Of a stretch of 39,448 nucleotides of DNA, positions 20,348 through 39,448 are shown piece after piece; position 1 is the stretch's first letter, and every line of letters starts with the position of its first letter. Location: positions 7,608 through 47,055 of IMG/VR virus record IMGVR_UViG_3300014827_000004, one strand, 5' to 3'. The position numbers and the translations under genes were made by a program. The notes below the pieces were generated by a model. The model did no database searches and was not told the DNA's origin. It saw only the letters and a list, made by a program, of their open reading frames with translations. This stretch comes from a virus.

Positions 20348-20411
20348 TGTTAATTATCCCCTTTCAATAATAGATTTATATTTAATTTATAATAAAGAGT
20401 CTTACAACTCA

Positions 20412-21125: not shown

Positions 21126-21133
21126 AATTTCAC

Positions 21134-21610: not shown

Positions 21611-21625
21611 TTCTATTCACCCCTT
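21608..21625 (-). promoter_or_regulatory. Ribosome-binding site and ATT start of the tail-completion gene
   Basis: The minus strand reads AAGGGG-TGAATAGAA-ATT: a Shine-Dalgarno site, 9 nt, then ATT (21610-21608). The layout matches that of the rusA-like gene, where SD-TGA-six bases-ATT also occurs. Confidence 0.6.
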
Positions 21626-22868: not shown

Positions 22869-22885
22869 ATATTATCACCAGCCTT

Positions 22886-23212: not shown

Positions 23213-23646
23213 AATCCCAAATCCTTTTTGGGATCAAAATTAGAATGTAAATAAGAAGTAATCATTCTGTTTGCTGTTACTGTTGCTAAAGTATGTGTTT
23301 GTCTAATCTCTTTAAGTAAATTTGCAGGGGAGAACATACTAAAATCTTTACTCGATAAATTATTTCGCAAATTCTCAATCGTATAGAGCTTTGGATTAAG
23401 CCATTCTACAACTAATAATTTTGCAAGAATACCTTTTTCTTTATCAGTTAATTCTAGATTAAATTGCTTTAAAACTTTATCTCTGTCTGATAAATCTATT
23501 TTACATTTACTAAATTCACCAATTGAACTTAACAACCAACCTTCGAGAATTTCATTTTGAATGTCAGAAGACAAACTTAAAAACTCATAGTCAGAAGTCA
23601 TGCCTGAAAACAAATCATAAATATCACTATATGGAGTTGGAGTCAT
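23209..23646 (-). CDS. Putative head-tail adaptor protein
   Basis: A 145-residue protein, mostly helical, with a central DKEKGILAKLLVVEWLNPKL stretch. This helix-rich pattern and its place after the capsid gene resemble head-tail adaptors of the gp6/gp15 type. AAAGGAG is 9 nt before the ATG at 23646. It is coupled to the next gene through a 4-base overlap. The role is inferred from position. Confidence 0.5.
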   Translation of the reverse strand: MTPTPYSDIYDLFSGMTSDYEFLSLSSDIQNEILEGWLLSSIGEFSKCKIDLSDRDKVLKQFNLELTDKEKGILAKLLVVEWLNPKLYTIENLRNNLSSKDFSMFSPANLLKEIRQTHTLATVTANRMITSYLHSNFDPKKDLGL

Positions 23647-23662
23647 GTATCACAACTCCTTT

Positions 23663-24253
23663 CTACTTAATAAAGTCTTTTAAGCTAGTGTGCATTATTT
23701 TATCAATGACACTAATAATTCTAGTATCATATAAAGTACCGTTGTCAATCATTTCTCTTGCCTTATCAGCAATCAATACTCTTGTTCCGTTAGGTGCTTT
23801 ACTTAAGATTTCCTCAATTTTCTTAGGAGTTTTTTGAAAGAAATCTTCTAAGTTTTCTCCAACTTCAGAAATTGTTCTGTATAGTTCTGCAAGACCACGA
23901 ATTGAAGCAACAACTTCTTCATCCTCAATAATAATCCAAGGCTTTGTAAGAAATTTAGGTTGCGATGCCCTCATGGTTAATATTTCACCGTACTCAACGT
24001 CTTCTGTTGTTCCAAAATCATTCCAAACTATTGTAGTACCAGTTCTAGTAGAGATATAAGTAAGTCCACCATAAGTAGCACTCCTGCAAGGAATTAATTC
24101 ATTTCTATCTATTTGTATTTTTGGCTTTCTTTGTACGGGTTGAGTTTCAGGAATCAATTCAACTTTTTCAATTGCAGGTTTCTTGGTAGCTACTTTTTTC
24201 TTTGTAACCACTTTTGTTACTGGTTTATCCGTAATATCTTTTTTAACTACCAT
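23663..24253 (-). CDS. Unknown virion-region protein
   Basis: A 196-residue protein directly after the capsid gene. The first 50 residues are Lys/Val/Thr-rich and probably unstructured (KKDITDKPVTKVVTKKKVAT). The middle is a small beta domain (GGLTYISTRTGTTIVWNDFG), and the last 80 residues are helical. AAAGGGAAG precedes the ATG. Such proteins recur after capsid genes in large Gram-positive phages, and a head or neck role is likely. No motif gives a function. Confidence 0.5.
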   Translation of the reverse strand: MVVKKDITDKPVTKVVTKKKVATKKPAIEKVELIPETQPVQRKPKIQIDRNELIPCRSATYGGLTYISTRTGTTIVWNDFGTTEDVEYGEILTMRASQPKFLTKPWIIIEDEEVVASIRGLAELYRTISEVGENLEDFFQKTPKKIEEILSKAPNGTRVLIADKAREMIDNGTLYDTRIISVIDKIMHTSLKDFIK

Positions 24254-24276
24254 TTATATTCTTCCCTTTCATTCAG

Positions 24277-24306
24277 ATAATAGGGAAGAACTAACTTCCC
24301 TATTAT
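24277..24306 (-). terminator. Hairpin after the major capsid gene
   Basis: A 12-bp perfect stem (ATAATAGGGAAG with CTTCCCTATTAT) and a 6-nt loop lie 15 bases after the capsid stop codon. The 3' arm ends in a U-rich stretch but there is no pure U-tract. It is probably a partial terminator or a 3'-end stabiliser that keeps capsid mRNA above downstream genes. Confidence 0.65.
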
Positions 24307-24321
24307 TATATTAACTATAGA

Positions 24322-25314
24322 TTACAGATCATAAATTCCATATAATTTGTTGAAAATGGTGCTTACACCGAAGTTCTTAACCATTTTGTAAGCAACGGAC
24401 ATATCAAGAGTAGATTCTCCATTGGACTCATCTACGATAGCACTGACACCTTCATTGACGATTTTAATAGGTTTAACATTCATTGGAAGGATATAAAGAA
24501 GAGTGTCATCCAATTTGAAATCAAAAGTATTCAAGTTATGAACTTGGGTAATAGGCATAAGAGGAAGACCTCTCCAGAAACCAAGCTTACCTCCTGTATA
24601 CATTTCATTCTTCATGTTTTCACTCCAAGAAATATCAGCAGTACCATAAAGGTTGCCCAATGCAACTTTTGTCCCAGCGATTACGATAGGTGCATTACCA
24701 TTGGCAGCTTGAACATGATCACAAATGCTTTGAAGAGTTGCAGCAGCAAAAGTACCTGTCATTTTGAAAACTGAAGGAAGGTATGCAATTGAAGCATTCA
24801 TCGAAGTATAAATGGTATCTTTTAATTGATTGTCAAAACCTTCTTGCACTTTACCTACTAATTTACTCCAGTCTAAGCGACCAGCCATAATACGAAGCAA
24901 CGATTCTCCAACAGCCAAACCATAAGTACTAACTGGTACAGAGAATACAGAACCTACGTCCATTCTTTGTGTCTTAATGTCCAAGTTGCCTCGTGCAATC
25001 TTGGATACTGTAAGAATAGAATCTGACTCAACTACGAATTCATTTTTGTCTCCAAGGTTCATGTCTTTGAAGTCAACAAATTGATTGAAAAATGTATTGT
25101 CAGCCCATCCAGAAGTAACAACCTCATCAAGAGCTACCTCTACAATTTCAAAAATTTCATTCTTATGTTTTCTGAAAGTTCTATAGTCAGGTGTAGCAGA
25201 ACCACAAATTTCAACAAGAGCTTCTTTAACAACTTTATTACCATCTTTTACAGAAAACTTATCAACCGAACCACGAGCAGTATCAACCATAACTTTAATT
25301 AAATCTTTACTCAT
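24322..25314 (-). CDS. Major capsid protein
   Basis: A 330-residue capsid subunit. Length, position after the protease/scaffold and decoration genes, and the sequence pattern fit an HK97-fold capsid protein: helical N-terminal region with R-T-F-R-K-H, DNTFFNQFVDFKDMNLGDKN, then GTADISWSENMKNEMYTGGK and the C-terminal beta part. AGGAGG lies 12 nt before the ATG at 25314. A hairpin follows the stop. It should be among the most abundant proteins of infection. Confidence 0.8.
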   Translation of the reverse strand: MSKDLIKVMVDTARGSVDKFSVKDGNKVVKEALVEICGSATPDYRTFRKHKNEIFEIVEVALDEVVTSGWADNTFFNQFVDFKDMNLGDKNEFVVESDSILTVSKIARGNLDIKTQRMDVGSVFSVPVSTYGLAVGESLLRIMAGRLDWSKLVGKVQEGFDNQLKDTIYTSMNASIAYLPSVFKMTGTFAAATLQSICDHVQAANGNAPIVIAGTKVALGNLYGTADISWSENMKNEMYTGGKLGFWRGLPLMPITQVHNLNTFDFKLDDTLLYILPMNVKPIKIVNEGVSAIVDESNGESTLDMSVAYKMVKNFGVSTIFNKLYGIYDL

Positions 25315-25348
25315 AATAATTACTTTCCTCCTTTTAATTTATTTATTA

Positions 25349-25891
25349 TTAAACGCTTAATACACGAGCACGAATTTTCTTATATGTATTTCCTACTTGA
25401 CCATTAGAACCTACATATGTCATAAGTCCAACTGTTTCAACAGCTTCAATTTTCAGAACTGTTTTAGCAGTGCCAGAGGCAGCAATTTCTGCAAGTTTAT
25501 AAGAAGCATTTGCAGCGATTAAAAAGTTTCCTACTACTGCATCAGTAGCGAGCAAAGTAACACCATCATAAGAAATTTCTACAACGTCACCAACATTGAG
25601 TTCATAACCTTTGCAGATTGTGTTAGCTTCAATAGAAAATTGTCCTAGTTGTTTCTTTGTATATGTGGACTCATCATAAAGAATTTCATCCATGTAGACC
25701 ATTACTGCCGTAGCTGTAGGAATAGTTGCAGTTGCAAATTGATTCAGATCATAAACCTCTTGTTCACCAGAAACAATATTACCTACGATACCTACGAAAC
25801 CATTTTGAAGAACTGTTGCATTTTTAACATTATAGATATGACCAATTTTACGACTTTTTACCTTAACTAAATCACAAATTGAGTTTGCCAT
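25349..25891 (-). CDS. Putative head decoration / stabilisation protein
   Basis: A 180-residue protein, beta-rich and Ala/Val/Thr-rich, lying between the protease/scaffold gene and the capsid gene. It shows repeated strand patterns (LLATDAVVGNFLIAANASYK, LMTYVGSNGQVGNTYKKIRA). Position and composition fit a decoration protein that binds the outside of the capsid. GAGG is 9 nt before the ATG at 25891. No specific family is claimed. Confidence 0.55.
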   Translation of the reverse strand: MANSICDLVKVKSRKIGHIYNVKNATVLQNGFVGIVGNIVSGEQEVYDLNQFATATIPTATAVMVYMDEILYDESTYTKKQLGQFSIEANTICKGYELNVGDVVEISYDGVTLLATDAVVGNFLIAANASYKLAEIAASGTAKTVLKIEAVETVGLMTYVGSNGQVGNTYKKIRARVLSV

Positions 25892-25923
25892 TTTAAAATT
25901 CCTCCTTATTTCTTATTTATATA

Positions 25924-27492
25924 TTATTTATCAAGATATTTTGTAAACAACCCACCATAAGGTTCATTGTCAACATCATCTTCATGGGAAACGCTAATTT
26001 TAACTGTAGCTTTCTTAACTTTGTTTACTGAGAAGTTTGCAGTCTTTTTGACAAATAAAAGTGCTAATTCTTTTTCAAGATTTTCAAGTGTGAAGTTAGC
26101 AGAATTTGTTTTTAATGCTTCAAACTCTTCAACACCAGTAAGCTTCTCTTCGTATTGAGAGAACATTTCTGTCTCTTGATCTGCACGTAATTCAGAAAGA
26201 GTAACTACTTCAAATTCTTGAAGTCTTACAATTTCAGGTTTAACTAATTCATATTCAGTTGTAATTGTGTCTAGTAAAGTTTGTACTTCATTAACTGCTG
26301 TTTCCTTTTCAGTAGTAAACTGAGCAGTCAATTCTTTTTCTTTGTCGCTAATAGCATAGTCAATTGCTTCTTGAGGGAACATGCTGATTACAACAGTACC
26401 TTCAATAAAATCAACTATTTCAAATTTCTTGCGTTTCTTTGATGTGAAATCAACGACAACAGAATCGCCACTTGCAGAATAAGCGAATCCAAAAAGATTA
26501 TAATTTTCTTGTCTGTCATAAGCGAACACTTCTGAGTCAGTGTGATCAACTGGTGAGTATTTGGAACAATTGTCGCCCCATCTGTCAACAAACATTTCTG
26601 ACCTTATAGCGTTATCAAGTTCTTCTTCCTTTTGAGAAGCTAATAGTTCAAATTGTTCTTTAGCTTTAACTTCTATCTCTTCAATTGAAAGTTCTTCAAT
26701 ACTAAATGAAATACTTTCTGGTGTAAGATTGTATTTGGTTAGGACTTCTAACTTTTCATCCAATTTCAATTTCTCCTCCTTTTCAAAGTTATTTTCTGGG
26801 GTATTTATATCAACCTCTGGATTAGCAGAGGGTTGAATCTTAGAAAACTGTTTGAACTGTTCCATCTTTTCTTGGATTTCCTTCTTAAAATCTTCAGAAG
26901 AGAATTTTAGTTCAATAGACGCTTCTTCCATAGCAGGTAAAATATCTATATTAGATAATGCACATGCACCAAAGAATTGGAAAGATGTAAAATGAAATAA
27001 ATTATCATCTTCAAAACGACCTTGATAATTTTGATGAACTTCCATAGACTGCTGATGTTTTGTATCCCTTTGGAGAATATCAATAGGGTCATCCCATTTT
27101 GTCCAAAGAAGACCATCTACAACAAGATACTCACGTTCAATGCCACTCTCAGTGGTTTGTTTTTCAAATCTAGCATTATTAGTTTCAGGAATTACCCCAA
27201 TTGCTTGACCAATATATTTAATTTTATATTGACCGTCATCTTTAACCAATACCTGCCTATGGTCTGAGTAATCAATTTCACCATCTTTATTCTCTTCTAT
27301 GTAAGCTAGAATTGGCGTGTTAGCTAAAGATGGAATAGCAGATTGCACAACATCTTTTGCAAAATATGAGCCATTAAAATTTTCTTCTGTATGCATGAGC
27401 TTAATAGTTACTTCCATGAATCTCGTATCTTCAACTTCATATGTTTTTCTTACAGAAAATTCAACTGGAATATTCCTACCCACAACATCCAC
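25924..27492 (-). CDS. Prohead protease fused to scaffold
   Basis: A 522-residue protein between the portal and decoration genes. The N-terminal 200 residues look like a phage prohead protease: His78 in YSDHRQ and Ser149 in HQQSMEVH form the likely catalytic pair, with an upstream FNGSYFAKDV pattern. From about 200 it is acidic, Glu/Lys-rich coiled coil. A small beta domain is inserted at about 300-360 (FAYDRQENYNLFGFAYS), then more coiled coil. This fits a protease that frees itself and the scaffold as the head matures. It starts at a GTG (27492) with AAGGAGG 9 nt upstream. The protease call is reasonable but based on motifs only. Confidence 0.7.
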   Translation of the reverse strand: MDVVGRNIPVEFSVRKTYEVEDTRFMEVTIKLMHTEENFNGSYFAKDVVQSAIPSLANTPILAYIEENKDGEIDYSDHRQVLVKDDGQYKIKYIGQAIGVIPETNNARFEKQTTESGIEREYLVVDGLLWTKWDDPIDILQRDTKHQQSMEVHQNYQGRFEDDNLFHFTSFQFFGACALSNIDILPAMEEASIELKFSSEDFKKEIQEKMEQFKQFSKIQPSANPEVDINTPENNFEKEEKLKLDEKLEVLTKYNLTPESISFSIEELSIEEIEVKAKEQFELLASQKEEELDNAIRSEMFVDRWGDNCSKYSPVDHTDSEVFAYDRQENYNLFGFAYSASGDSVVVDFTSKKRKKFEIVDFIEGTVVISMFPQEAIDYAISDKEKELTAQFTTEKETAVNEVQTLLDTITTEYELVKPEIVRLQEFEVVTLSELRADQETEMFSQYEEKLTGVEEFEALKTNSANFTLENLEKELALLFVKKTANFSVNKVKKATVKISVSHEDDVDNEPYGGLFTKYLDK

Positions 27493-27522
27493 GTATTTTC
27501 ACCTCCTTAAACAGTCACCAAG

Positions 27523-29040
27523 TTACTCAATGACTTCATCTAAATCTATAGTATATGCGCGATTAGCAGGATCATTTGAACCATTAGCAACAGTTTTATC
27601 TCCACTTGCAGTTTTAACCCCATCCGCTTTCTTAGGCGCACCGCCAGTTCCATCAGAACTTAAAGTTGCAGATGATTGCATTGGAATCATAAGATTTGGA
27701 AGGTCTAGAATTGTATTTTCTAAAAATAATAAATTATTAAATGAGTTTGGGGAAATTCCTAAACAAGCAGCAGCTTTCATTTTAGTTGGAAGACCATATG
27801 AAGCTGATGTAATAAAACTATCAAATAATTCTTTATAATTGAATATAGTAGAATTTATATATGATACTTTAAATTTATAGGTTTCTGAATTATATCTATC
27901 AACTAACCTATTTACATTTCTTTCTATCTGCTTAACTAACGACCAACTCAATGCTTCATCCGTGATCACGCTTTTTGCTAAACTAGCACCCGTTCCATCA
28001 GCAGCAGACATTAGCAATTGACTTACTCCAGATTCAGTCCAGAACTGAGCGTTACTATCAGCTACTCTGTTAGTTTGTGTTTTCTCTTCATCAAATTTAA
28101 TAGGTGCTAATTCAGTTGGAGATAAAAGCAATCCAATTTCAGGAGGTAAAATACTGGCAATGAAATTATAATATTTTGTAACTTCATCAGGATCAATCAG
28201 ATATGGATTAGATGCATCAGACTTCGGATCTAAAGGTAGTGTCATAGCAAGCAAGGAATAAGCACCTAATGCAGTTCTTGTTTTTTGGAGTGCCTTATAG
28301 TCTTCAATGTCGTAAAGACTAGCGAAAACTGAACAAAATGGCACTAAAGGGTAATCAATATCTTCACTTATCTTTAAACAAAAACATTTTTCTGGGTCAA
28401 CTTCTTGCCATCTTTTATGTGTTTGGTCTTTTTTGTAGATAGCAAACATTTCTTCGAATTCACTAGGAAATTGTGCAAATATAGCTTTGTTTTTACCATT
28501 AAAATATAAAAAGTCAAAACTATACGTATAGCAACCATCTACTATACTAGTTATCTCGCAATAATCATTTGGAAGTTTTTGAAGAAAGAATGAGTCTTTA
28601 GTTGAATGAGCATATCCAAAGAAAATATCTTCTCTCCAAGCACCCACTCTTGCTTTAATTAACTCATGTTGTAAATTCATATTTTCTACTGTTAAACAAA
28701 GGTCATTATATGTTTTTAAGAACATTTTATTATTTAACTTTTCATAATTAATATAATAAGGTTCAACAGTATATTGCATTAAATGAATAGTTGCAAAGTA
28801 ATTTATCAAACGTCTATACTGAGGTGAGACTACATATAGAAAATTACTCATTCTTCTCAAGTTTTTAGAATATAGCTCAGGTTTCTCCAAATACTTAATT
28901 ACATCTTCTCTAGTATATTTAGTAAAGAATGATTGAGTTTTTTTAGCACTTGAGTTATTTAAGTCCTGTAATATTAATTTTGCTAATTTTGAGAAGTCTA
29001 GATTTGGGACAGTTGGTGGAGTAGGTTGTTTTACGGTCAA
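27523..29040 (-). CDS. Portal protein
   Basis: A 505-residue portal, the dodecameric ring at the capsid vertex through which DNA is packed. It follows the large terminase as usual. Features include an N-terminal helical part, a stem/clip-like section (YFNGKNKAIFAQFPSEFEEM), a long helix near 340-400 (FWTESGVSQLLMSAADGTGA, then KQIERNVNRLVDRYN) and a disordered Gly/Ser/Lys C-terminus. The start is a TTG at 29040, 7 nt after GGAGG. The call rests on pattern and gene order. Confidence 0.85.
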   Translation of the reverse strand: MTVKQPTPPTVPNLDFSKLAKLILQDLNNSSAKKTQSFFTKYTREDVIKYLEKPELYSKNLRRMSNFLYVVSPQYRRLINYFATIHLMQYTVEPYYINYEKLNNKMFLKTYNDLCLTVENMNLQHELIKARVGAWREDIFFGYAHSTKDSFFLQKLPNDYCEITSIVDGCYTYSFDFLYFNGKNKAIFAQFPSEFEEMFAIYKKDQTHKRWQEVDPEKCFCLKISEDIDYPLVPFCSVFASLYDIEDYKALQKTRTALGAYSLLAMTLPLDPKSDASNPYLIDPDEVTKYYNFIASILPPEIGLLLSPTELAPIKFDEEKTQTNRVADSNAQFWTESGVSQLLMSAADGTGASLAKSVITDEALSWSLVKQIERNVNRLVDRYNSETYKFKVSYINSTIFNYKELFDSFITSASYGLPTKMKAAACLGISPNSFNNLLFLENTILDLPNLMIPMQSSATLSSDGTGGAPKKADGVKTASGDKTVANGSNDPANRAYTIDLDEVIE

Positions 29041-29061
29041 AAGATTACCTCCTTTCTGAGA

Positions 29062-30840
29062 TTATGAACGTAATGTTGGTTTACGGAATTTCATAAGTGA
29101 TGATAAATTAGTATGTTTTTTCTTTCTTTGCTTGTTTTTCTTTTCCTGTAAATGAATCCAAAACATTCCATAAAGCAATGCAGAGAACTTATCCTTCTGG
29201 ATTTTTCTTGACACACGTTCAATTTTAGTATCATTACCGTTTTGCTTATATACTAAATTCATAATTTCTTCACTTAAATTATCACTTAATATATATGGAA
29301 TTTGATAATTAGCTAATTCATCGCTATCTCTGATTTTATGTTTAATTTTCTTTTCCATATCCTTTATACCTTCATATGGACTTTTCAGTAAACCGATATC
29401 CATTTTATTAAAGACTTGCATAAAGTTATTTATCATGTCACTATTTTTTGTATCTTTATTCTGTGCTTTTAATGCAAAGACCATAGGGATACCATTCTCT
29501 GACTCGTATTTTTTCCATTGTGCTTTTTCATCATTTACAACATTATAGGGGGGATTACCATCATCTAAATTTAACACTAATTGATCTACTACCCCAGAAC
29601 CAATTCCGTTTGCATCAACTATTAGGATTCTAGCTTTAAATTCTTTTACTTTCTGTTTTAAGAATTTTGCTTGCCAAGTATCATGTTGTCCCTCCATAGA
29701 AAATAGATTTACGACTTCCTTAACAAAATTTCCATCGCTTCTAGGAGTTAACTTTATAATAACTAAACAAGAAAGAGCGTTTTCGTCTCCTTCATTTCTA
29801 CTAACGTCATATGCTAAACAGTAAATGACATTGTTATCACCACAGTGTTCCCACTCAGCAACACCTACTGTTCTACACTTCCGTAATTTATCGTCAGAAA
29901 CAAGAGAGTCTGTGCTAGAACCTGTCCAGATACTTTGGTATTCTCTCATGAAGTCAAGAATTGAAAATGTAGGTGATTCTCTAAGTTCTTCAATAAAATC
30001 AATATCTAATTGTCCATACATACAAGGCAACTCGTAAGAGTTACCAATGCAAAATGCAGATTTACCATTAAGCATGTCTTGATATACTTCAGCCATCTTC
30101 TCGTATGCAAATTGTTGTTGCGTCCCTGCTGTAGTGATATATAGCTCACATTTATGAACTTCACTTGGGTCAACGCCACCACATGATGCTATACGATCAT
30201 TAGCCATTAAGGGCACAACTACAGCATTAAGTATATTCCCATCAAATTTCTTATCGGAAATTTCCTCAATTGCTCCTCCGTATCTACGACCTCCACGACT
30301 AGAATCACGCATTTGAACAACGTCATATTTAGAACCATTGTGGAAAACCAATTTAGTATAATCTTTATTTTCTGTAAAAATCTTTATTTCATTTCTTAGC
30401 AAAGGATAATGCTCTAAAATATCATTAATATTATCAGCAGTAATTTTAGCAGCTTGTTCTTTACCGACTGCACATGTGAAAAGTTTTGTTTTGGGGTACA
30501 TAATACATTTTAAAATAAAAGCTAAATTTTGAAGATAACTCTTAGAAGTACCCCTAGTGGCAGTAAGAAAAACTTTTCGATATCTCATCATTATTCTTAG
30601 ATATACTCTTTGATAATAATACAATTGTATTTTAGAATCAGGCGAAGAAATGAAGTCAAGGAATTTATCAGGGAAAAACCTAAAATAACTACATAATTCT
30701 CTCCATTTTTCCTTAGAAGCTTCAAACCCTTTAATTTGCAAATTATTAATATTATTAGATTCAATACTTTGTGGATTAGCGAATGTATCGCTATCTTTTG
30801 TTCCTCTGTTTCTTTTACTAAAATTACTTGACGATGCCAC
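29062..30840 (-). CDS. terL: Terminase large subunit
   Basis: A 592-residue packaging motor. The ATPase half has a Walker A-like TRGTSKSY (about residue 95), a Walker B region GGAIEEISD and a TAGTQQ coupling motif. The nuclease half has acidic residues in LAYDVSRNEGDENAL and ILIVDANGIGSGVVDQL, the RNase H-like set typical of TerL. The start is a GTG at 30840 whose G is shared with the TAG stop of the preceding gene (TAGTG), so the two are translationally coupled. Confidence 0.95.
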   Translation of the reverse strand: MASSSNFSKRNRGTKDSDTFANPQSIESNNINNLQIKGFEASKEKWRELCSYFRFFPDKFLDFISSPDSKIQLYYYQRVYLRIMMRYRKVFLTATRGTSKSYLQNLAFILKCIMYPKTKLFTCAVGKEQAAKITADNINDILEHYPLLRNEIKIFTENKDYTKLVFHNGSKYDVVQMRDSSRGGRRYGGAIEEISDKKFDGNILNAVVVPLMANDRIASCGGVDPSEVHKCELYITTAGTQQQFAYEKMAEVYQDMLNGKSAFCIGNSYELPCMYGQLDIDFIEELRESPTFSILDFMREYQSIWTGSSTDSLVSDDKLRKCRTVGVAEWEHCGDNNVIYCLAYDVSRNEGDENALSCLVIIKLTPRSDGNFVKEVVNLFSMEGQHDTWQAKFLKQKVKEFKARILIVDANGIGSGVVDQLVLNLDDGNPPYNVVNDEKAQWKKYESENGIPMVFALKAQNKDTKNSDMINNFMQVFNKMDIGLLKSPYEGIKDMEKKIKHKIRDSDELANYQIPYILSDNLSEEIMNLVYKQNGNDTKIERVSRKIQKDKFSALLYGMFWIHLQEKKNKQRKKKHTNLSSLMKFRKPTLRS

Positions 30841-31811
30841 TACGCATCATCTCCATTAACAATATCAGAACTGTCATCAACCTCAATGTCATTAATAATA
30901 ATTTGATTAATGTTATCAATCTCATCCATTTCTATCTTTGGAGAGTCAAGAGGAGGTGATACCATTGACTCTACTTTATTTAATTTCAAAGTGAAGTTTT
31001 CAATATGCATAATTGTCTTATCAACAATATCTTGAGTAAGACCCCTAATTTTTCTGTAATGCTCCCAAGGTGGTATAAACCCATCCTTTTCAACTTCTGC
31101 ATAAATGGTGGAAAAATTACGAATTCCTCCTGTTTTATCTGCATCTGTCTTATCCATTGCTCTAAACTTAGAATCAGCCATATATTTGGAAAATAAATTA
31201 CCTAGTTTTGTAGCTTCATCATAATGACTCTCTTCAAGCTCTTTATCCATTTTCAATGAAATTATAGCTAACTTTTTTAGATAAACCTTATCTTGTGCAG
31301 TCTCAATATTATTAGATAACTCCATGCCACTATAAAAATCTTCTAGTTTTGCATAGTCTTCTCTAGGATGAATGCCCCAACGAATAATAATTTCTTCTGT
31401 AACCTCAAAGGCAGTTGTTGTATTTATATATTGACCCATGTTTATCTTTACAGGATTAATACTATCTGGCTCGAATTTACTATCTTTCCATGTTCCTTTT
31501 TTAAATTCATTAATTTTAGAGTTCGCCATTGTAATATATCTACTCCAAGGATCATCTGGGTTATTTTCTTTTGCACTTCTCCAATATGAGTAAATGAATG
31601 GAATGTCTAATAGCTGAAGGATCTTATATACAGTTTCTATCGTATTATAATCAAGCATGGATTTTACGCATATCTTGCATATGTTTAATTTACCATCCAC
31701 GGACAAGACGGAATTTGTATTATAGAACGCGGAAAATATTAATTCCCTGTGGCAATTATCACACTCTTTTTTAGGTCTTGGTTCTGTATTTTTTACTCTC
31801 CTAACTACCAT
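30840..31811 (-). CDS. terS: Putative terminase small subunit with N-terminal zinc-binding motif
   Basis: A 323-residue protein coupled to terL through a TAGTG overlap, the usual place for the small terminase. The N-terminus has a Cys4 set (ECDNCHREL...LNICKICV), likely one zinc site. The rest is helical with a Pro-rich region, and the last 45 residues are very acidic (IEMDEIDNINQ...VDDSSDIVNGDD). Small terminases recognise the packaging site and are usually shorter, so this may be a fusion or a different packaging factor. The start chosen is the ATG at 31811, 9 nt after GGAG; a longer frame to 31868 begins in a hairpin. Confidence 0.55.
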   Translation of the reverse strand: MVVRRVKNTEPRPKKECDNCHRELIFSAFYNTNSVLSVDGKLNICKICVKSMLDYNTIETVYKILQLLDIPFIYSYWRSAKENNPDDPWSRYITMANSKINEFKKGTWKDSKFEPDSINPVKINMGQYINTTTAFEVTEEIIIRWGIHPREDYAKLEDFYSGMELSNNIETAQDKVYLKKLAIISLKMDKELEESHYDEATKLGNLFSKYMADSKFRAMDKTDADKTGGIRNFSTIYAEVEKDGFIPPWEHYRKIRGLTQDIVDKTIMHIENFTLKLNKVESMVSPPLDSPKIEMDEIDNINQIIINDIEVDDSSDIVNGDDA

Positions 31812-31850
31812 ATTTTCATTCTCCTTTAATTCATGTTTATAGACATAACG

Positions 31851-31880
31851 AAATTCTCCATCAAACAAGATGGAGAATTT
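31851..31880 (-). terminator. Perfect 12-bp hairpin before the terminase genes
   Basis: AAATTCTCCATC (31851-31862) pairs with GATGGAGAATTT (31869-31880) over a 6-nt loop. It lies between the Cys-rich gene (stop at 31895) and the putative small terminase (start at 31811). On the minus strand only UUUCGUU follows, so it may be a weak terminator or a regulatory leader. Confidence 0.55.
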
Positions 31881-31894
31881 TAAACACCTACAAA

Positions 31895-32359
31895 TTAATC
31901 TTCCAAAAAGTCCTGCATTTCTGCCTTAACTTCCAGTTTTCCTAATTCCTTAAACTTATACAATGTCTCAATAACTTTATTAATTGTGCAATCGACACAA
32001 CCGTCAGAATTAAAAACAACATCCAAACATTCACTAATCAATTCATCTTCACGAGTCTCATTACATTCAGGACAAAAACAATCTTCTAGCTCATCTTCAG
32101 GGTCTCCACAACCTTCACATTGAGTGCAGTCATATTCGCATGTACTACATTCTTGTTCTTCCTGCTCTAGTCTACGTTGTTCTACGCAATCATCACAATC
32201 ACATTGGATAACTAAAGGTTCTTCTTCAGTGGCAAGTTCTTCACATGCAACTTGTTCATAAAACTCATCAGATGATACCATTAAGCTATCTACAAAGAAA
32301 TATTCAACCCAATCCTGAGTTTCTTTATCCCATAGTGATTCATTTTTAAATACACGCAT
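31895..32359 (-). CDS. Very acidic Cys-rich protein, probable metal binder
   Basis: A 154-residue protein with about 15 Cys residues and many Glu/Asp. The middle (about 52-105) packs CDCDDC, CSTCEYDCTQCEGC and CFCPEC, and there is a final GCVDC at about 123. The pattern suggests several zinc or iron sites but fits no ribbon family I know. The C-terminus is an ordinary helix. The ATG at 32359 lies 12 nt after AGGTGG. It sits between the ClpP-like gene and the terminase group. An anti-sigma, DNA-mimic or metallothionein-like role are all open. Confidence 0.6.
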   Translation of the reverse strand: MRVFKNESLWDKETQDWVEYFFVDSLMVSSDEFYEQVACEELATEEEPLVIQCDCDDCVEQRRLEQEEQECSTCEYDCTQCEGCGDPEDELEDCFCPECNETREDELISECLDVVFNSDGCVDCTINKVIETLYKFKELGKLEVKAEMQDFLED

Positions 32360-32413
32360 ATTTATATTTATCCACCTTTATTTATTATTTTAATGTTATT
32401 AATGTTATTAAAC

Positions 32414-32755
32414 CTAAAGTTCGGAATTATCCTTTGCATTAGAAACATGTTTAGAAACTTCAATTGAACCATTTGCAGATATCTCACTTATCTTAATATT
32501 GTTCTCTATGTTCATTTTATTGAATATATATGCAACACTATCTTCCATACTCCAACCACAATTTATCAGAGCAGTATACATACCACATGCACAACTTGCT
32601 TCTTTAATACCCCTAATAAACTCTTCTTTATCAAGTTGCTTAGGTACACTTAACTCCATAGGTTCAAAGAACATAATTATATCTGAATCTGGTTTATTTA
32701 ATTCTACAGGTAGAATAGCATCTTTTGTTTTTGTTTCCTTTTCTTCTAGCGACAT
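32414..32755 (-). CDS. Small unknown protein before the Cys-rich gene
   Basis: A 113-residue protein, helical in the middle (EEFIRGIKEASCACGMYTAL), with a Ser/Asn-rich end. GGAG lies 7 nt before the ATG at 32755. It follows the ClpP-like gene by 17 bases and is probably co-transcribed. No family is recognised. Confidence 0.55.
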   Translation of the reverse strand: MSLEEKETKTKDAILPVELNKPDSDIIMFFEPMELSVPKQLDKEEFIRGIKEASCACGMYTALINCGWSMEDSVAYIFNKMNIENNIKISEISANGSIEVSKHVSNAKDNSEL

Positions 32756-32772
32756 ATTAATTCTCCTATTTC

Positions 32773-33360
32773 CTACAAAATTTTATCCACAATATTGAAC
32801 TCATCTGTAACTGCATCAGAACCCCAAAAATACCAGTCATACTTCATTTTCTTGATTTCTTCTAATCTTTCATCTGAAATATTTGTAGTATCAGTTATAA
32901 TTGTTTTAAGTTTATTCCATATAGTTGCTGTTTCTTCCATGTCATCAATCATATCTTGATGTTTTCCAGAAGTTCCAGATATAGCACTATGAACCATAAT
33001 TCTTGAATCAGGCAAAGCTCTACGTTCACTTCCACTTATTAATATCCAGAACCCACCTGAAAAAGCTATCGTATGAACAGTAGTAATAATCCTGTATCCA
33101 TCATTTACAACCATACTTCTGATTTTAGAGCAGAGGGCAATTGTTGAATATGCATCTCCACCGTATGTATCCAAAACAATCTCAATAGGTTTTTTAGTTC
33201 CTGATTTTTTATCAATAGCTTGAAGTCGATCTAGATAATAAATTACCTTAAAGATAGACTCTCTATCAATCTCCTCACAAATAAAAATACGTCTGTCTCT
33301 GATTGCAGAATTTATTTTCATTTCTTCTATTACTCTATCTGGTTGGATCATAATTTCCAT
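32773..33360 (-). CDS. ClpP-like serine protease
   Basis: A 195-residue protease of the ClpP/crotonase fold. The pattern matches ClpP: DTYGGDAY oxyanion strand (about 64-71), nucleophile Ser101 in AFSGGF, His124 in IMVHSA, and a likely Asp175 in KYDWYF before SDAVTDEFNIVDKIL. The triad looks complete, so it should be active. In many phages a ClpP-type enzyme is the capsid protease. Here it lies upstream of the terminase, while another protease candidate sits next to the portal, so its target is unclear. AAAGGT is 9 nt before the ATG. Confidence 0.85.
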   Translation of the reverse strand: MEIMIQPDRVIEEMKINSAIRDRRIFICEEIDRESIFKVIYYLDRLQAIDKKSGTKKPIEIVLDTYGGDAYSTIALCSKIRSMVVNDGYRIITTVHTIAFSGGFWILISGSERRALPDSRIMVHSAISGTSGKHQDMIDDMEETATIWNKLKTIITDTTNISDERLEEIKKMKYDWYFWGSDAVTDEFNIVDKIL

Positions 33361-33386: not shown

Positions 33387-34604
33387 TTATTGTAAAATTA
33401 CATCCTTAATCAATTCAATTTTCCCATTATCATCAACAATACAAATGGTTTGAGATGCAAAAGTTGTAGCTCCAAACTTAACTGAGTAGTCATTATATCC
33501 ACTCAAACAACCTGTATAAATAACATATCTTCCGTTATTCTCAGACTCAATATTAAAGTTATGTAAATGGCCCTTAAACAGAACATCATAGAATTGGTTA
33601 TCTACAGAAATCTCATTTCTCATAGCCCTCTTACCATCTTTAGTAGAGTCCTCACCATGAATGAATTTACATTTAAGTCCATTAATACTTTTAACTATTT
33701 CTTTATCTGTATGTGATCTATCAATGACTGTTACACGTTTATTATCGGTTATTTCTACATAAGTTTTAAGTTGTTCTCTAATAATAACTTCTGCATTATC
33801 TCCATCAAGATTAACTTTCTTATCTCCATTTATTCTGTCGTGATTTCCGTAAATGCTATCATATTCAACTTTTGTATATTTGCTTAACGCACACAGAAAT
33901 CTATAAATTAGTTTAATAGCTTTATTTATTTGCTCTGATTGTGTAAACTCACAGAATTGACTTTGATTTGCTCTCATGTAAGTATGTTCTATTATATCTC
34001 CTGTGTTGACAACAGAAATATTACTAATTCCATACAATTCTATGTATTTATAGCATTCAGAAATAAGTTTATCTACTCTTTTATTAGCAATTTCCCAATT
34101 ATAGTAATTACCCTTACAATTATCAATCACATACCCGATATGCCAGTCTGTCATATGGACTATCATTTTATATTTGCTATTATTTACATTTAATGTTTCA
34201 TGACAATATTCAGGAATAATAATCGTACAATTTTCTGATAGATAATCTTTAATATCTTCCGCAACACTAACAGACTTAATGAAGTCTTTTTTTAGAGCAT
34301 TAAGTTGTCTGTTTTGGTCTCTAATTTGTTGTTTCTTAATATCAAGTTCTCCGACAATTTCTCTAACTTGATCTAATTTCTTTTCTACAATAATATCTCT
34401 GATTACTTCTTGTTTTTTGAGAGTACCATCTTTACCTTGGCGTTTTTTAATAAATTGTCTATATGCTTCTCCAGTTGGAAACGGTAGTTCATAAAAATTG
34501 TTCAAGTCTGACCAAGAAGGTTTATTAGTATTAAGTAGAGTCTTATATTTATTTCTATTATTTTTGAAGTCTACGCCTATAGTATATAATTCGTTTTTAG
34601 ACAT
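33387..34604 (-). CDS. Calcineurin-like metallophosphoesterase
   Basis: A 405-residue protein. Residues 1-130 are charged helices with a coiled coil (about 75-110). The phosphoesterase domain shows D153-W-H155, GD203-IIE, GN254-H255-D (YGNHDR), HGED and KGHLH, a nearly complete set of metal ligands. It is similar in outline to SbcD/Mre11-type nucleases and to phage phosphoesterases. The GDxx[DE] motif carries Glu where Asp is common. The start is the ATG at 34604, 6 nt after GAGG; a longer frame to 34619 is rejected. It probably acts on DNA ends or nucleotides, but the substrate is unknown. Confidence 0.8.
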   Translation of the reverse strand: MSKNELYTIGVDFKNNRNKYKTLLNTNKPSWSDLNNFYELPFPTGEAYRQFIKKRQGKDGTLKKQEVIRDIIVEKKLDQVREIVGELDIKKQQIRDQNRQLNALKKDFIKSVSVAEDIKDYLSENCTIIIPEYCHETLNVNNSKYKMIVHMTDWHIGYVIDNCKGNYYNWEIANKRVDKLISECYKYIELYGISNISVVNTGDIIEHTYMRANQSQFCEFTQSEQINKAIKLIYRFLCALSKYTKVEYDSIYGNHDRINGDKKVNLDGDNAEVIIREQLKTYVEITDNKRVTVIDRSHTDKEIVKSINGLKCKFIHGEDSTKDGKRAMRNEISVDNQFYDVLFKGHLHNFNIESENNGRYVIYTGCLSGYNDYSVKFGATTFASQTICIVDDNGKIELIKDVILQ

Positions 34605-34668
34605 TCTCAACCTCATCACAATTTATTTTCATTATTAATATCATAATCGACCATATGATTTATCTTAA

Positions 34669-34832: not shown

Positions 34833-34906
34833 TGGAGCCGAAACACAGAATCAAACTGTGAATCTCTGATTACAAAACAGAAGTTTTATCATTAAACTAT
34901 TTCGGC
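34833..34906 (-). tRNA. tRNA-Thr (anticodon UGU)
   Basis: The cloverleaf folds well: acceptor stem GCCGAAA/TTTCGGC, D arm GTTT/AAAC, TpsiC arm CACAG/CTGTG, and an encoded CCA end with discriminator T. The anticodon loop TTTGTAA gives anticodon TGT, reading ACA. One T-T mismatch closes the anticodon stem. It follows the Asn tRNA by 3 bases. Confidence 0.85.
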
Positions 34907-34909
34907 ATT

Positions 34910-34985
34910 TGGCTGCGAGAGCAAGGTTCGAACTTGCGACATTCTGATTAACAGTCAGACGCTCTACCAACTGAGCTATCACGCA
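34910..34985 (-). tRNA. tRNA-Asn (anticodon GUU)
   Basis: The cloverleaf has a TCTGA/TCAGA anticodon stem with loop CTGTTAA (anticodon GTT), a GCAAG/CTTGC T arm with loop TTCGAAC, discriminator G and an encoded CCA. The acceptor stem has one T-T mismatch (TGCGTGA/TCTCGCA). It reads AAC and AAU, codons an AT-rich phage uses heavily. Confidence 0.9.
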
Positions 34986-35547: not shown

Positions 35548-35832
35548 TTATGCTTTAACTTTGTCAGAAAATGCTTTTCCGCAAGAGTACGCAACCTTAA
35601 AGGAATCCTCAGTAGTCCAAGTTTCTCCCTTACGATCACCAAATTGAATTGTTCCAGATGTTCCTTTGGTTGCTTTTTTCTCGAAACTACCAAAACCAAC
35701 AATTTGTACCTTCAAACCTTCTGTTACAGCATCTTCGATAACTTCTAATGTCGCTTTTAGTGAAATTTCTGTGTCCTTTTTAGAGAAACCTGTTTTCTCT
35801 GCAATAGCATTAATTAATTCTTGGCGATTCAT
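35548..35832 (-). CDS. HU-like DNA-bending protein with an altered arm
   Basis: A 94-residue HU/IHF-family protein. The N-terminal half is classical: MNRQELINAIAEKTGFSKKD, then the VQIVGFGSFE strand. The DNA-binding arm is unusual. Where HU proteins have an RNPxTG tip with the intercalating proline, this one reads KGTSGTIQFGDRKGETW with no such proline. The C-terminal helix (GKAFSDKVKA) is normal. It may therefore bend DNA less or bind other shapes. GGAG lies about 10 nt before the ATG at 35832. In SPbeta an HU-like gene (yonN) lies beside the yonO RNA polymerase gene, and this window has both within 2 kb. Confidence 0.85.
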   Translation of the reverse strand: MNRQELINAIAEKTGFSKKDTEISLKATLEVIEDAVTEGLKVQIVGFGSFEKKATKGTSGTIQFGDRKGETWTTEDSFKVAYSCGKAFSDKVKA

Positions 35833-35863: not shown

Positions 35864-37099
35864 TTAATCCAATAGATCAGCTAATTCAGCCGACTTTGAG
35901 CGTTCTGTAATATTTAATTCTACACATCCAAATAATTCTTGACCTTTTAGTTTATTGATGACTTGTTTTAATCCATTGTTTCTTTCAAATAACTTATCAT
36001 CAATTTGCTTGAAGTCTCCATTTAACCACAAGACACTACCTTCTGCTAAACGACCAATAAGCAATTGGATATGTTCCTTACTCATATTTTCTGCTTCTGT
36101 GCAGTAGATAATTGAGCGTTTTAAATCACGCCCACGAATAAATCCTAGATGCTGTAATACAATTACTCCATCATCAATTAACTTAGTTAATCCTTCTACT
36201 CCTCCAACATGGTCTGCCAAAGGCATAGCAAATGAAATTAATTTGTCATCAGCACTCCCAGGTAAAAATCCTAATGGTTTACTTCCTAAAACCTCAATAT
36301 TATTTCTTACAAAAACTAACTTATCAAATACACCTTGTCTTATCATAGAAAGTGCATGAGTAGCCATAATTAGATCCTTGCCTGACCCAGCCTTTCCAAA
36401 AATAGCTTTTATAGTTATTAACCTGTTTTGGAACAAGTCAAAAGCTAACTCCTGTTGGTCGTTCCTTGGTTTAATTTTATCTGTATAAGTAAAATCAAGT
36501 TTGCTCTTTTTACTTTCAAAAACTACCTTGAAGAACTCATTTCCATTCCATCTTTGTTTATCAACAATTTCTCCATCTTCATTTTTAATAAAAACGTATT
36601 CGTTTGTCAATAATCCTATATTATTAAGTTTTTTATTTTCATAAAATGATGCTAATTCAGAATCACTAAATGTTACTTCTCTATATCCTTTGTAATTATC
36701 ATCCTCAGATGATTTCTCTTCTAATTTGTCACAAGGAATCATGAGCAGATTGCATTTTTCTCTAAACAGCAGATCATTGCTAATTGCGCGTACTTCATTA
36801 TTACTATCATAAAGTTGATTCAGCACAGAGATAATCTTATTGTCCATTGAACCAATATCAAAATATGAAGGTAGGTCAAAATTACATTCATTAATTATGT
36901 ATTGAATTTTATCCGCATATTTCTCAATTGCTCTGCCAGCACGACGAGCTTTAAATTTCTTATCATCTACATGACTCTCTTTATGTTTATCTAATTCTTG
37001 AAGCACATACCCACAAATGTAGACTTTATCATAATTCAAAAAGATGGAATCAGGGTCTTCCATTAAAACGTTTGTGTCTGGAAAACGTTCTTTGAACAA
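35864..37099 (-). CDS. phoH: PIN-PhoH protein (PhoH-like ATPase)
   Basis: An N-terminal PIN nuclease domain (PDTNVLMEDPDSIF near residue 10, LQELDKHKES near 45) is followed by a PhoH P-loop ATPase. Walker A is FGKAGSGKD at about residue 237, and a Walker B-like IIYCTEAENMSKE comes later. Cellular PIN-PhoH proteins are RNA-acting ATPase/nucleases; phage copies are common but of unsettled role. Start choice: a TTG at 37099 lies 10 nt after AAGGG (411 residues). The ATG at 37108 is only 1 nt from that site, and a still longer frame to 37237 overlaps the upstream gene by 100 bases. The domain call is firm; the exact start is less so. Confidence 0.85.
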   Translation of the reverse strand: MFKERFPDTNVLMEDPDSIFLNYDKVYICGYVLQELDKHKESHVDDKKFKARRAGRAIEKYADKIQYIINECNFDLPSYFDIGSMDNKIISVLNQLYDSNNEVRAISNDLLFREKCNLLMIPCDKLEEKSSEDDNYKGYREVTFSDSELASFYENKKLNNIGLLTNEYVFIKNEDGEIVDKQRWNGNEFFKVVFESKKSKLDFTYTDKIKPRNDQQELAFDLFQNRLITIKAIFGKAGSGKDLIMATHALSMIRQGVFDKLVFVRNNIEVLGSKPLGFLPGSADDKLISFAMPLADHVGGVEGLTKLIDDGVIVLQHLGFIRGRDLKRSIIYCTEAENMSKEHIQLLIGRLAEGSVLWLNGDFKQIDDKLFERNNGLKQVINKLKGQELFGCVELNITERSKSAELADLLD

Positions 37100-37136
37100 A
37101 TATATCATTCCCTTATTATTTATTTTGTCTACATTA

Positions 37137-37376
37137 TTACAAGACACTAAGCAAATATTTTTGATTATGTTTAACTGTTTCTGGGTTAACTTTAGTTCGA
37201 GACTCAATTCTAAGTAATTGATTAAATACATTATCATTTACAAATCTAGTTTTTTCTTTCCCAGAACCTTGTTTATTAACAACTACCAATTGATCACCAT
37301 AGTTACCCTGTGAAGTGAGTTTGAGAATCTTATTGTCTATGAGAAAGTCCATCTGAAGTTTTGATATCTTTTGCAA
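37137..37376 (-). CDS. 79-residue unknown protein
   Basis: A charged, helix-rich protein (L-I-D-N-K-I-L-K-L-T-S-Q-G) with a basic middle and no motif I recognise. It starts at a TTG (37376), 11 nt after AAAGGAG. It ends 37 bases before the PhoH start, so the two are likely co-transcribed. A promoter-like element and a 10-bp inverted repeat lie 45-80 bases upstream, which suggests regulated expression. Confidence 0.6.
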   Translation of the reverse strand: MQKISKLQMDFLIDNKILKLTSQGNYGDQLVVVNKQGSGKEKTRFVNDNVFNQLLRIESRTKVNPETVKHNQKYLLSVL

Positions 37377-37463: not shown

Positions 37464-37632
37464 AAGGGTACAATTTTACAATCATACCCTTCTTCATAAG
37501 GGTCATACATATCTCTTTATTTTGTATATTAGGCTATGTTTCCCTTAGAGACTATTATGACGAATTGCTGTAATGCAGTCATACCAACGGTTACATCAAT
37601 TATGGATATTTGGTTAAATCTCAAACCGTTGG
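37464..37632 (-). other. Non-coding, hairpin-rich stretch downstream of the RNA polymerase gene
   Basis: Between the polymerase stop (37656) and the 79-residue gene I see no gene. Stems found: CCAACGGTT/AACCGTTGG (37584-37592, 37624-37632); a GACT...AGTC stem near 37551-37581 with an inner ATTA/TAAT; and AAGGGTA/TACCCTT (37464-37470, 37485-37491), which competes with ACCCTT/AAGGGT (37486-37491, 37498-37503). The two last stems share one arm, so only one can form at a time. It could be a terminator/antiterminator pair or a structured leader; there is no U-tract. Confidence 0.45.
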
Positions 37633-37655
37633 GAGAGTAAGGGTGTAGCATTTTT

Positions 37656-39448
37656 CTATTTGCGAGATTTATTATATCTAAGTCGTTGTATGGCTCTGTC
37701 ATTCTCTAATTTTGTAGCTCTCGCACATATTTTACAGTATTTAAGTTTGTTATTCGTCTGGTCTATTAAGTCTCCGCAAGCTTCACAATATGTTTTATTA
37801 GTATCCACATTTCCCTTTAGATTCTCAACAATAATATTTCCAAAGCATTCCCATAATGTAGTTTTAAAATTTGACTTTTTAAATTCATATAGATATTTAA
37901 CCAATACGTCAGTTACATAATATATGTCTTCATTAACTTCTAATATGCTTTTTACAATTTCTTGATAAAGATAAGTTACGTTGCTTTGTTCATCATCTTC
38001 ATATGTAGAGTTCATCATGAAATGCTTCTTCAAGTCCATCTCTTTATACTTTTTAATAACATCTTCATCTAGCTTTATTCTTTTGTTCTTTAACATCATC
38101 TTATAATCAAAATTTCCTAAATTCGCTGCAACAAAACTTATCTTAGTATTAGGTATTATTTTCTCCAATCTATTTACTATACTATTATTAACTTCCTCAA
38201 CTTTATCCTTTTCTTTATCCTTAGCGTAGATAAAAAAGTGTGGAGTTTTTAACTTTGTATAATCAGTAATCATATTCTTCTTATATTTTGGTCTTACTGG
38301 TTTATACAATGTCTTAGCATAATCAATTGTAAAATTATTTTCCATACAAAGTAATTTAACTACTTCAAGGTTTACATTTCCACTATTCCATATCTTTGTA
38401 ATGTTATTACTTACCGTTCCTATGTTCCCTCCTGTATATGCAGTCTTTAGTCCATTATAGATACTATTATTAGTGATAATTTCAGCAGGAGCTTTTCTCA
38501 TGTTATAGTATAAGGGAACTATTCCTTCCATATTACGCTCCGCTATAGAAATTAGAGTAGGGCAAGCAACTACCAAAGACTTATCTCCATCAACATCAAA
38601 TTGTAGGATCTTAGATATTAAATCGTGACAACTAGTATATACCCCATTAGTAATAAACCATTTTTTCTTATCATCATCAATAATATTATTTCTGATTGCG
38701 TGTTCCCTGTAAAGATGTGGGCTGCGTAGGCAATCCAGTTTAGGAGAATTAGGATATAGGTTACAATATACATCTCCATCATTGAGCAATCCTTTAGGGT
38801 CTGTATCTCCAAGAATCAAATACTCACAGAAAGCGTAGATGTCAGGAATAATAAAAGTATATACTCCATTTATGTCTAACTTAGCCGATCTACCTTCTTT
38901 AACCATACTTTTTTTAACTTGTTTCAATATTTCCTTACTATATGTATCATTCAACAACTCAGGATAAATCTCCAATGCTTGTTGAATATTATTCTTATTC
39001 TTGTTAGACTTCTTTACTCCTAATACTTTAAGCATGGTTTTTCTATCTCTGCCAATGTTCAAGATATTATATTTAGTTGTCTTTGCAATAGTTTCTAATT
39101 CTTTATTGTCCATATCAGTTAATGTCTGAAGCATCTGATAGTTTATTTTTGCATCGCTAAAATCTTCTTCCTCTTCATTACATTTTCCAGCTTGACACTT
39201 ATACTTTATGTAGTTATCTTGGTATACTTCCCACCCTGACATTTTAGTATCTAATGTGTTTTGAAAATACTTATACATCTTGAATTGACTACGAGTGAAA
39301 ATTACTTGTATTCCTTCCCCTAATATATCGTGGCATTTCCCATAAATATCTACCACATTTCCATATATTTTACCTTCACTATTTTTATTTGATTCTATAA
39401 TAAACTCATCAAACGCAAATGGAACTAGCAAACCTTTAATCCAAGGTC
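37656..39448 (-). CDS. YonO/QDE-1-like single-chain RNA polymerase, 5' end cut off
   Basis: About 597 codons are visible and the frame stays open to the window edge. A TTG at 39431 is preceded in frame by P-W-I-K-G, so the true start is outside. The hallmark is FDVDGDKSLVV (Asp triad at 38583-38597), the DxDGD catalytic motif of two-barrel RNA polymerases (multi-subunit beta', QDE-1 and SPbeta YonO). About 40 residues before it, CLRSPHLYREHAI matches the conserved R-x-P-x-L block of the RdRP-like family. The C-terminus adds a zinc ribbon (CEAC...CKIC). YonO is a DNA-dependent polymerase shown to transcribe SPbeta late genes; the same job is inferred here for the head and tail genes downstream. 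The family call is confident because the catalytic motif and its partner block sit in the right order. Confidence 0.85.
   Translation of the reverse strand, partial: PWIKGLLVPFAFDEFIIESNKNSEGKIYGNVVDIYGKCHDILGEGIQVIFTRSQFKMYKYFQNTLDTKMSGWEVYQDNYIKYKCQAGKCNEEEEDFSDAKINYQMLQTLTDMDNKELETIAKTTKYNILNIGRDRKTMLKVLGVKKSNKNKNNIQQALEIYPELLNDTYSKEILKQVKKSMVKEGRSAKLDINGVYTFIIPDIYAFCEYLILGDTDPKGLLNDGDVYCNLYPNSPKLDCLRSPHLYREHAIRNNIIDDDKKKWFITNGVYTSCHDLISKILQFDVDGDKSLVVACPTLISIAERNMEGIVPLYYNMRKAPAEIITNNSIYNGLKTAYTGGNIGTVSNNITKIWNSGNVNLEVVKLLCMENNFTIDYAKTLYKPVRPKYKKNMITDYTKLKTPHFFIYAKDKEKDKVEEVNNSIVNRLEKIIPNTKISFVAANLGNFDYKMMLKNKRIKLDEDVIKKYKEMDLKKHFMMNSTYEDDEQSNVTYLYQEIVKSILEVNEDIYYVTDVLVKYLYEFKKSNFKTTLWECFGNIIVENLKGNVDTNKTYCEACGDLIDQTNNKLKYCKICARATKLENDRAIQRLRYNKSRK

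What the first reader, a model, noticed from the sequence alone, without database searches (positions are those of the whole stretch)
37656..39448. Single-chain two-barrel RNA polymerase upstream of the late genes
Seen: a DVDGD catalytic triad, an upstream CLRSPHLYREH block, and a C-terminal Cys4 zinc ribbon. Known: this set defines the YonO/QDE-1-like branch of RNA polymerases, which is rare in phages and poorly sampled. Inferred: it transcribes the head and tail operon from a phage-specific promoter. The added C-terminal zinc ribbon could be a new lineage trait.
Basis: partly seen in the sequence, partly recalled or inferred. Interest (0 to 1): 0.78.

Follow-up and report, generated by a model that had tools for sequence, protein, structure and literature searches.

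The report
Truncated phage YonO-type RNA polymerase gene
This is the 5'-truncated gene of a phage's own one-piece RNA polymerase, a relative of the known YonO enzyme of Bacillus phage SPbeta; the enzyme is a known kind, but just behind its gene lies a conserved, undescribed DNA/RNA element that is a testable candidate for the unknown start signal this polymerase uses.

Summary
Window 37656-39446 (- strand) is a 596-aa fragment of a YonO-family single-chain RNA polymerase. It lacks about 278 N-terminal residues because the contig ends there. It is 51% identical to SPbeta YonO. A full-length model of its 93%-identical relative folds like the two-barrel polymerases RDR2 and QDE-1 (Z 24.6 and 21). 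The DxDGD triad is present in 132/132 homologues aligned. Head and tail genes follow on the same strand, as in SPbeta, where YonO was shown to transcribe the late genes.

The novelty claim is wrong. The C-terminal four-cysteine ribbon is a family trait: at least three of the four cysteines occur in 131/132 homologues, and SPbeta YonO has all four. The one exception is cut off by its contig end.

New here: a conserved cis element at window 37500-37557 (-), 98 bp behind the yonO stop, absent from Rfam. It recurs at this place in most yonO loci, and in 44 Bacillus genomes it occurs only in the four with an SPbeta-type yonO. It joins a promoter-like block (TAATnGTCTTTAAGGGA) to a hairpin. The only mapped YonO start site falls inside a TAATAGTC copy, so the element is a candidate YonO promoter. 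That reading is suggestive, not shown.

The parts
37656..39448 (-). yonO gene, 5'-truncated by the contig end: 596 C-terminal residues of a YonO-type single-chain two-barrel RNA polymerase; about 278 N-terminal residues missing
   Evidence: fold
38583..38597 (-). catalytic DVDGD (residues 284-288), the metal-binding aspartate triad
   Evidence: DxDGD in 132/132 aligned homologues; Asp-to-Asn mutant of the triad in SPbeta YonO is inactive (PMC5467207)
38700..38732 (-). CLRSPHLYREH block (residues 239-249); R241 and E248 invariant
37725..37787 (-). C-terminal CxxC...CxxC putative zinc ribbon (C554, C557, C571, C574), followed by a basic tail
   Evidence: at least three of the four cysteines in 131/132 homologues; all four in SPbeta YonO
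37500..37557 (-). conserved element behind yonO. Module A: promoter-like TAATAGTCTCTAAGGGA (about 37541-37557). Module B: hairpin with loop CTAATATACAAA..AAGAG. Candidate YonO promoter and transcript leader
   Evidence: no Rfam match
37584..37635 (-). 9-bp stem-loop CCAACGGTT...AACCGTTGG between the yonO stop and the element; SPbeta has an annotated stem-loop at the same place
35864..37237 (-). PhoH-like gene, first gene behind the element
   Evidence: phrog_2765 E = 7.5e-93
35548..35832 (-). HU-like DNA-binding protein gene (yonN counterpart)
   Evidence: phrog_379 E = 1.5e-22
34833..34985 (-). tRNA-Thr(TGT) and tRNA-Asn(GTT) in the yonN-yonJ gap, the gap that holds the mapped YonO start in SPbeta
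33387..34619 (-). exonuclease gene (yonJ counterpart)
   Evidence: phrog_284 E = 6.4e-76
6175..33360 (-). late operon: head protease, terminase, portal, virion proteins, tape measure, tail protein

Best explanation
The gene encodes the phage's own late RNA polymerase, an orthologue of SPbeta YonO: one chain carrying two double-psi beta-barrels, with catalysis at DVDGD. Most likely the host polymerase makes yonO mRNA earlier in infection; YonO then transcribes the downstream PhoH, HU-like, exonuclease, head and tail genes as late transcripts. The C-terminal four-cysteine ribbon and basic tail are ancestral to the family and probably contact nucleic acid. A conserved element 98 bp behind the yonO stop (37500-37557, -) is the best candidate for the signal where YonO starts in this phage. 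Shown here: homology, fold, conserved catalytic residues, gene order, and the element's conservation and specific linkage to yonO. Inferred: activity, late timing, and the role of the element.
For: PHROG 8308 E = 1.3e-192; 51% identity to SPBc2 YonO. Full-length relative L003 (93% identical) modelled at mean pLDDT 85; Foldseek finds only RDR2/QDE-1 chains at E <= 0.001, best 1.8e-15, and structural alignment gives Z 24.6 (RDR2), 21 (QDE-1) and 14.8 (P74-26 gp62). The window's own truncated model gives the same top hits (E 6.8e-7). DxDGD 132/132. Gene order yonO, (PhoH), yonN, yonJ, terminase, portal shared with SPbeta. [quoted passage not shown]
Against: The N-terminal third is missing here, so integrity of this copy is unproven. 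The contig holds no data on expression, timing or activity. Whether YonO alone recognises a promoter is unknown even for SPbeta (PMC5467207). In SPbeta the mapped YonO start lies upstream of yonK, not directly behind yonO.
Confidence: 0.93

Rival explanations
1. (On the element, not the enzyme.) The element behind yonO is the YonO promoter: module A (TAATnGTCTTTAAGGGA) is read as DNA, transcription starts at or near GGGA, and the hairpin caps the 5' end of the late mRNA.
For: In 35 loci anchored at GG, conservation is concentrated at -12 to +4 and persists in Paenibacillus loci that lack the hairpin loop. Leave-one-out, module A is the best site of the whole locus in most loci, and is the single best site on the window by 5 bits (20.4 against 15.0). 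Covariance model R1 hits exactly the 4 of 44 Bacillus genomes with an SPbeta-type yonO and nothing else. The only mapped YonO start (168 position 2225998; G037 is 4,215,606 bases) is the second base of TAATAGTC; seven TAATnGTC copies lie on that SPBc2 strand, so chance is about 7 x 8 / 134416 = 4e-4, after the fact.
Against: At the mapped start the AGGG lies about 14 nt downstream with a different spacer. The ungapped matrix does not recover it and a gapped one ranks it 15th in SPBc2. The 2017 study reports initiation upstream of yonK, not behind yonO. Module B behaves as RNA.
Confidence: 0.4
2. (On the element.) It is an RNA-level cis signal in the transcript that runs out of yonO: a leader, processing, antitermination or autoregulatory structure, not a promoter.
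For: Helix with compensatory changes: on A8, 45 cells changed on both sides against 24.5 in shuffles, 0/500 shuffles as high; on the MAFFT alignment A7 weaker, 12 against 7.8, covariation score 11/500. Many copies place AAGGGA opposite TCCC.
Against: A8 was fitted to the structure. RNAalifold alone predicts no pairs on it. A swap test of the two arms gives only p = 0.047. Several loci keep module A without the loop.
Confidence: 0.35
3. A degenerate remnant: the gene is broken in the unseen 5' part and no longer works.
For: The contig ends inside the gene.
Against: The visible 596 codons are intact with every family-invariant residue tested, and the 93%-identical relatives L002 and L003 have full 885-codon frames.
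Confidence: 0.03
4. An RNA-dependent RNA polymerase of the QDE-1 kind, as some records label such genes.
For: Closest solved folds are RDR2 and QDE-1; two phage records carry that label.
Against: Orthologous SPbeta YonO is a strict DNA-dependent polymerase (PMC5467207); the context is phage late genes.
Confidence: 0.03

Closest known systems
YonO of Bacillus phage SPbeta (SPBc2p063; Forrest et al. 2017, PMC5467207)
   Same: 51% identity over the overlap, DxDGD, Cys4 ribbon, place upstream of yonN, yonJ, terminase and portal on the same strand
   Different: This phage has a PhoH-like gene between yonO and the HU-like gene, and a shorter gap with two tRNA genes instead of the 1.7-kb non-coding stretch upstream of yonK/yonJ; the spacing inside the element differs by a base or two
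Eukaryotic RNA-interference polymerases QDE-1 and RDR2
   Same: Same two-barrel single-chain fold over most of the chain (Z 21-25)
   Different: About 12-15% identity; they serve RNA interference and use RNA templates; no significant sequence match found
Two-barrel phage RNA polymerases P23-45 gp64 / P74-26 gp62, P23-45 gp96, crAss-like phi14:2 gp66 (PMC10770324)
   Same: Single-chain two-barrel phage polymerases (Z 14.8, 9.3, 9.0); the P23-45 enzymes have their own promoter motifs
   Different: Much more distant; gp96 and gp66 are virion polymerases; for P23-45 the promoter motifs were mapped from transcript ends, which is not done here
T7 late promoters and their 5' stem-loop leaders (own knowledge)
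   Same: Analogy only: short AT-rich promoter running into GGGA, then a 5' hairpin
   Different: Unrelated polymerase fold; no promoter activity shown here

Membership tests
YonO family (single-chain two-barrel phage RNA polymerase) | Full-length sequence homology to SPbeta YonO | tested here: met
   51% identity over 575 aa; phrog_8308 E = 1.3e-192; only the part present could be compared
YonO family (single-chain two-barrel phage RNA polymerase) | DxDGD catalytic triad and conserved lysines | tested here: met
   D284, D286, G287, D288, K4, K56 in 132/132
YonO family (single-chain two-barrel phage RNA polymerase) | Two double-psi beta-barrels in one chain | tested here: met
   Model of the 93%-identical full-length relative aligns with RDR2/QDE-1 over residues 10-825, Z 24.6/21; window fragment alone E 6.8e-7; barrels inferred from the fold match, not traced strand by strand
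YonO family (single-chain two-barrel phage RNA polymerase) | Place upstream of the late structural genes | tested here: met
YonO family (single-chain two-barrel phage RNA polymerase) | C-terminal Cys4 ribbon (shown here to be family-wide) | tested here: met
   131/132 homologues with at least three of the four Cys; SPbeta YonO has four
YonO family (single-chain two-barrel phage RNA polymerase) | Complete N-terminal third | not testable with these tools
   contig ends inside the gene
YonO family (single-chain two-barrel phage RNA polymerase) | DNA-dependent RNA polymerase activity; late genes depend on it | not testable with these tools
   needs the bench
T7-type single-subunit RNA polymerase | T7-type polymerase domain by sequence | tested here: not met
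   no Pfam family at E <= 1; all significant fold matches are two-barrel polymerases
QDE-1/RDR RNA-dependent RNA polymerases | RNA-templated RNA synthesis in RNA interference | not testable with these tools
   fold shared, but orthologous YonO is DNA-dependent (PMC5467207)
Rfam-described RNA families (for the element behind yonO) | Match to a curated covariance model | tested here: not met
   no Rfam 15 match over the element, even at E <= 1

The most novel reading that the evidence does not exclude
The conserved element behind yonO is the promoter of YonO-type polymerases, a start signal for a two-barrel single-chain RNA polymerase that was stated to be unknown in 2017: TAATnGTCTTTAAGGGA directly joined to a 5' hairpin leader, encoded beside the polymerase gene itself across phages and prophages of Bacillaceae, Paenibacillaceae and other Firmicutes.
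Probability: 0.38. Interest if true: 0.65.

Novelty: new member of a known kind. Interest (0 to 1): 0.42.

Why it matters
The polymerase itself adds one more member to a family characterised in 2017. What matters is the element: the promoter of YonO-type enzymes was left open in that study, and a short conserved sequence tied to yonO makes the question directly testable on SPbeta, a laboratory phage, with a run-off assay and a handful of mutants. How a polymerase without sigma factor or most msRNAP domains finds a promoter bears on how cellular transcription initiation arose.

Tried and rejected
Zinc ribbon as a lineage trait: rejected. Solved YonO structure: none found by sequence. Sigma-A -10 box: a CATAAT with a weak -35 exists in the window, but many loci read CTTAAT or GTTAAT, lacking the A at position 2, so a conserved sigma-A promoter is unlikely. 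Intrinsic terminator: the element has no T-run behind its stem; a separate terminator-like hairpin lies at 37464-37491. A conserved fold in the stretch between the yonO stop and the element: shuffle z-scores inconsistent. Further copies of the element in the window: none above background. RNAalifold on the CM alignment predicted no pairs, and the arm-swap test was borderline (p = 0.047), so the hairpin is stated with reserve. A motif in the yonN-yonJ gap of the window matching the SPbeta start: none found. Later papers naming a YonO promoter: none in the held library.

Full report
What is there. The open frame 37656-39446 on the minus strand gives 596 residues without a start. The window ends where the 47,055-base virus record ends, so the gene is cut at its 5' end. 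The closest relatives, L002 and L003 (93% identical), have 885-codon frames, and the first residue here aligns with residue 279 there.

Family. PHROG 8308 matches with E = 1.3e-192; Pfam and NCBIfam have no family for it. SPbeta YonO is 51% identical. One scan each of IMG/VR and the GTDB contigs gave 78 and 80 loci, mostly Bacillaceae, Paenibacillaceae and Lachnospiraceae where the host is named. Across 132 aligned proteins D284, D286, G287, D288, K4, K56, R241 and E248 never vary. DVDGD is the commonest form (77), DNDGD the next (50).

Fold. The full-length relative modelled well (pLDDT 85.3, pTM 0.79). All Foldseek hits at E <= 0.001 are plant RDR2 or fungal QDE-1 (best 1.8e-15). Structural alignment gives Z 24.6 and 21, then phage polymerases P74-26 gp62 (14.8), P23-45 gp96 (9.3) and crAss-like gp66 (9.0). 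The window's own fragment, modelled with lower confidence (pLDDT 75), gives the same family (E 6.8e-7).

Zinc ribbon. C554, C557, C571 and C574 are invariant in 54 of 54 near homologues including SPbeta YonO. In the wider set, 131 of 132 have at least three of the cysteines, with His at the fourth place in four proteins and Ser at the third in one; the exception L098 is cut by its contig end. Some members carry a second Cys4 behind the first. So the ribbon is ancestral, not a new trait. That it binds zinc is inference.

Function. Gene order behind yonO is PhoH-like, HU-like (yonN), two tRNAs, exonuclease (yonJ), head protease, terminase, portal, tape measure, tail, matching SPbeta apart from the PhoH gene and the tRNAs. 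In SPbeta, YonO is a processive DNA-dependent RNA polymerase, its aspartate triad is needed for catalysis, and 37 late genes stay silent without it (PMC5467207). The same role here is inference from orthology.

Promoter question. Doing so, a block at window 37500-37557 (-) turned out to be conserved behind yonO in most loci: 58 of 60 assessed nhmmer hits lie 41-152 bp behind the stop, on the coding strand. A covariance model (R1) searched over 1.45 Mb gave 50 matches up to E = 1, of which 46 are at this place by my count; 17 of the loci served to build the model, the others are independent. In 44 Bacillus genomes R1 finds only the four that carry a yonO at least 69% identical to SPbeta's, each within about 110-210 bp behind the matched yonO sequence. 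The two other genomes with weaker or remote homologues have no match. Rfam knows no such family.

Anatomy of the element. Module A is TAATnGTCTTTAAGGGA. Per-column information is concentrated between -12 and +4 around the GGG, with a small peak at -20. Leave-one-out, it is the top site of its whole locus in most loci; SPbeta-type and some others rank lower, at least partly because their spacing differs by a base or two. Module B is a hairpin whose loop reads CTAATwTACAAA..AAGAG. Covariation is supported on the model alignment (45 double changes against 24.5, 0/500) but that alignment leans to the structure; on MAFFT's own alignment support is modest, the arm-swap test is borderline, and RNAalifold is silent. 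Loci such as L023, L030, L090, L155 keep module A without that loop.

Link to the known start site. The one mapped YonO start is 168 position 2225998. Genome G037 is 4,215,606 bases long, which I know to be the length of the 168 reference, and matches the yonN-yonK gap of SPBc2 at 100%. The start is the second base of TAATAGTC, in GGAT^AATAGTCATTTATGAGGG. On that strand of SPBc2 TAATnGTC occurs seven times, so a chance hit is about 4e-4, counted after the fact. Against it: the GGG lies 14 nt further down, the gapped matrix ranks this site 15th in SPBc2, and no start directly behind yonO was reported. I therefore give the promoter reading 0.4 and an RNA-level role 0.35.

Verdict. An ordinary but well-supported new member of the YonO family, wrongly credited with a novel ribbon, plus an undescribed yonO-linked element worth one experiment.

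Noticed in passing
L072:11074-12338, L077:11074-11379, L062, L066, L074-L076, L078, L079: yonO is split at one site, after the conserved NNFTID (residue 375 here). L077's 305-bp insert matches the group I intron model (E = 2.6e-8, below the gathering score); a longer insert (L072) carries a 268-aa open frame.
   Followed up: partly
L052:8974-9989 (same in L054, L055, L057, L058, L060; also L053): yonO is interrupted by about 1 kb inside the catalytic motif (ILQFD / VDGD); no Rfam intron match, a 115-aa open frame inside.
   Followed up: partly
L080:10242-11922 (SPbeta yonN-yonK gap): The 1.7-kb non-coding stretch downstream of the mapped YonO start in SPbeta holds a DUF3800-VIII RNA (11601-11666, E = 7e-7) and two 25-nt repeats (10461 and 10618) containing TAATnnTCATTTATGARGGT, each the 5' arm of a possible hairpin.
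   Followed up: partly
window 17632-18654: Integrase-like recombinase gene inside the late operon, as yomM in SPbeta.
   Followed up: no
window 3875-5098: HNH/homing-type endonuclease gene on the late strand near the tail genes.
   Followed up: no
window 37656-39446, residues C84, C207, C228, C367: Further cysteines conserved in 120-129 of 132 homologues, outside the C-terminal ribbon; role unknown.
   Followed up: no
L033, L043, L047, L103-L105, L109: A second Cys4 or Cys3His-like motif behind the first in some YonO homologues.
   Followed up: no
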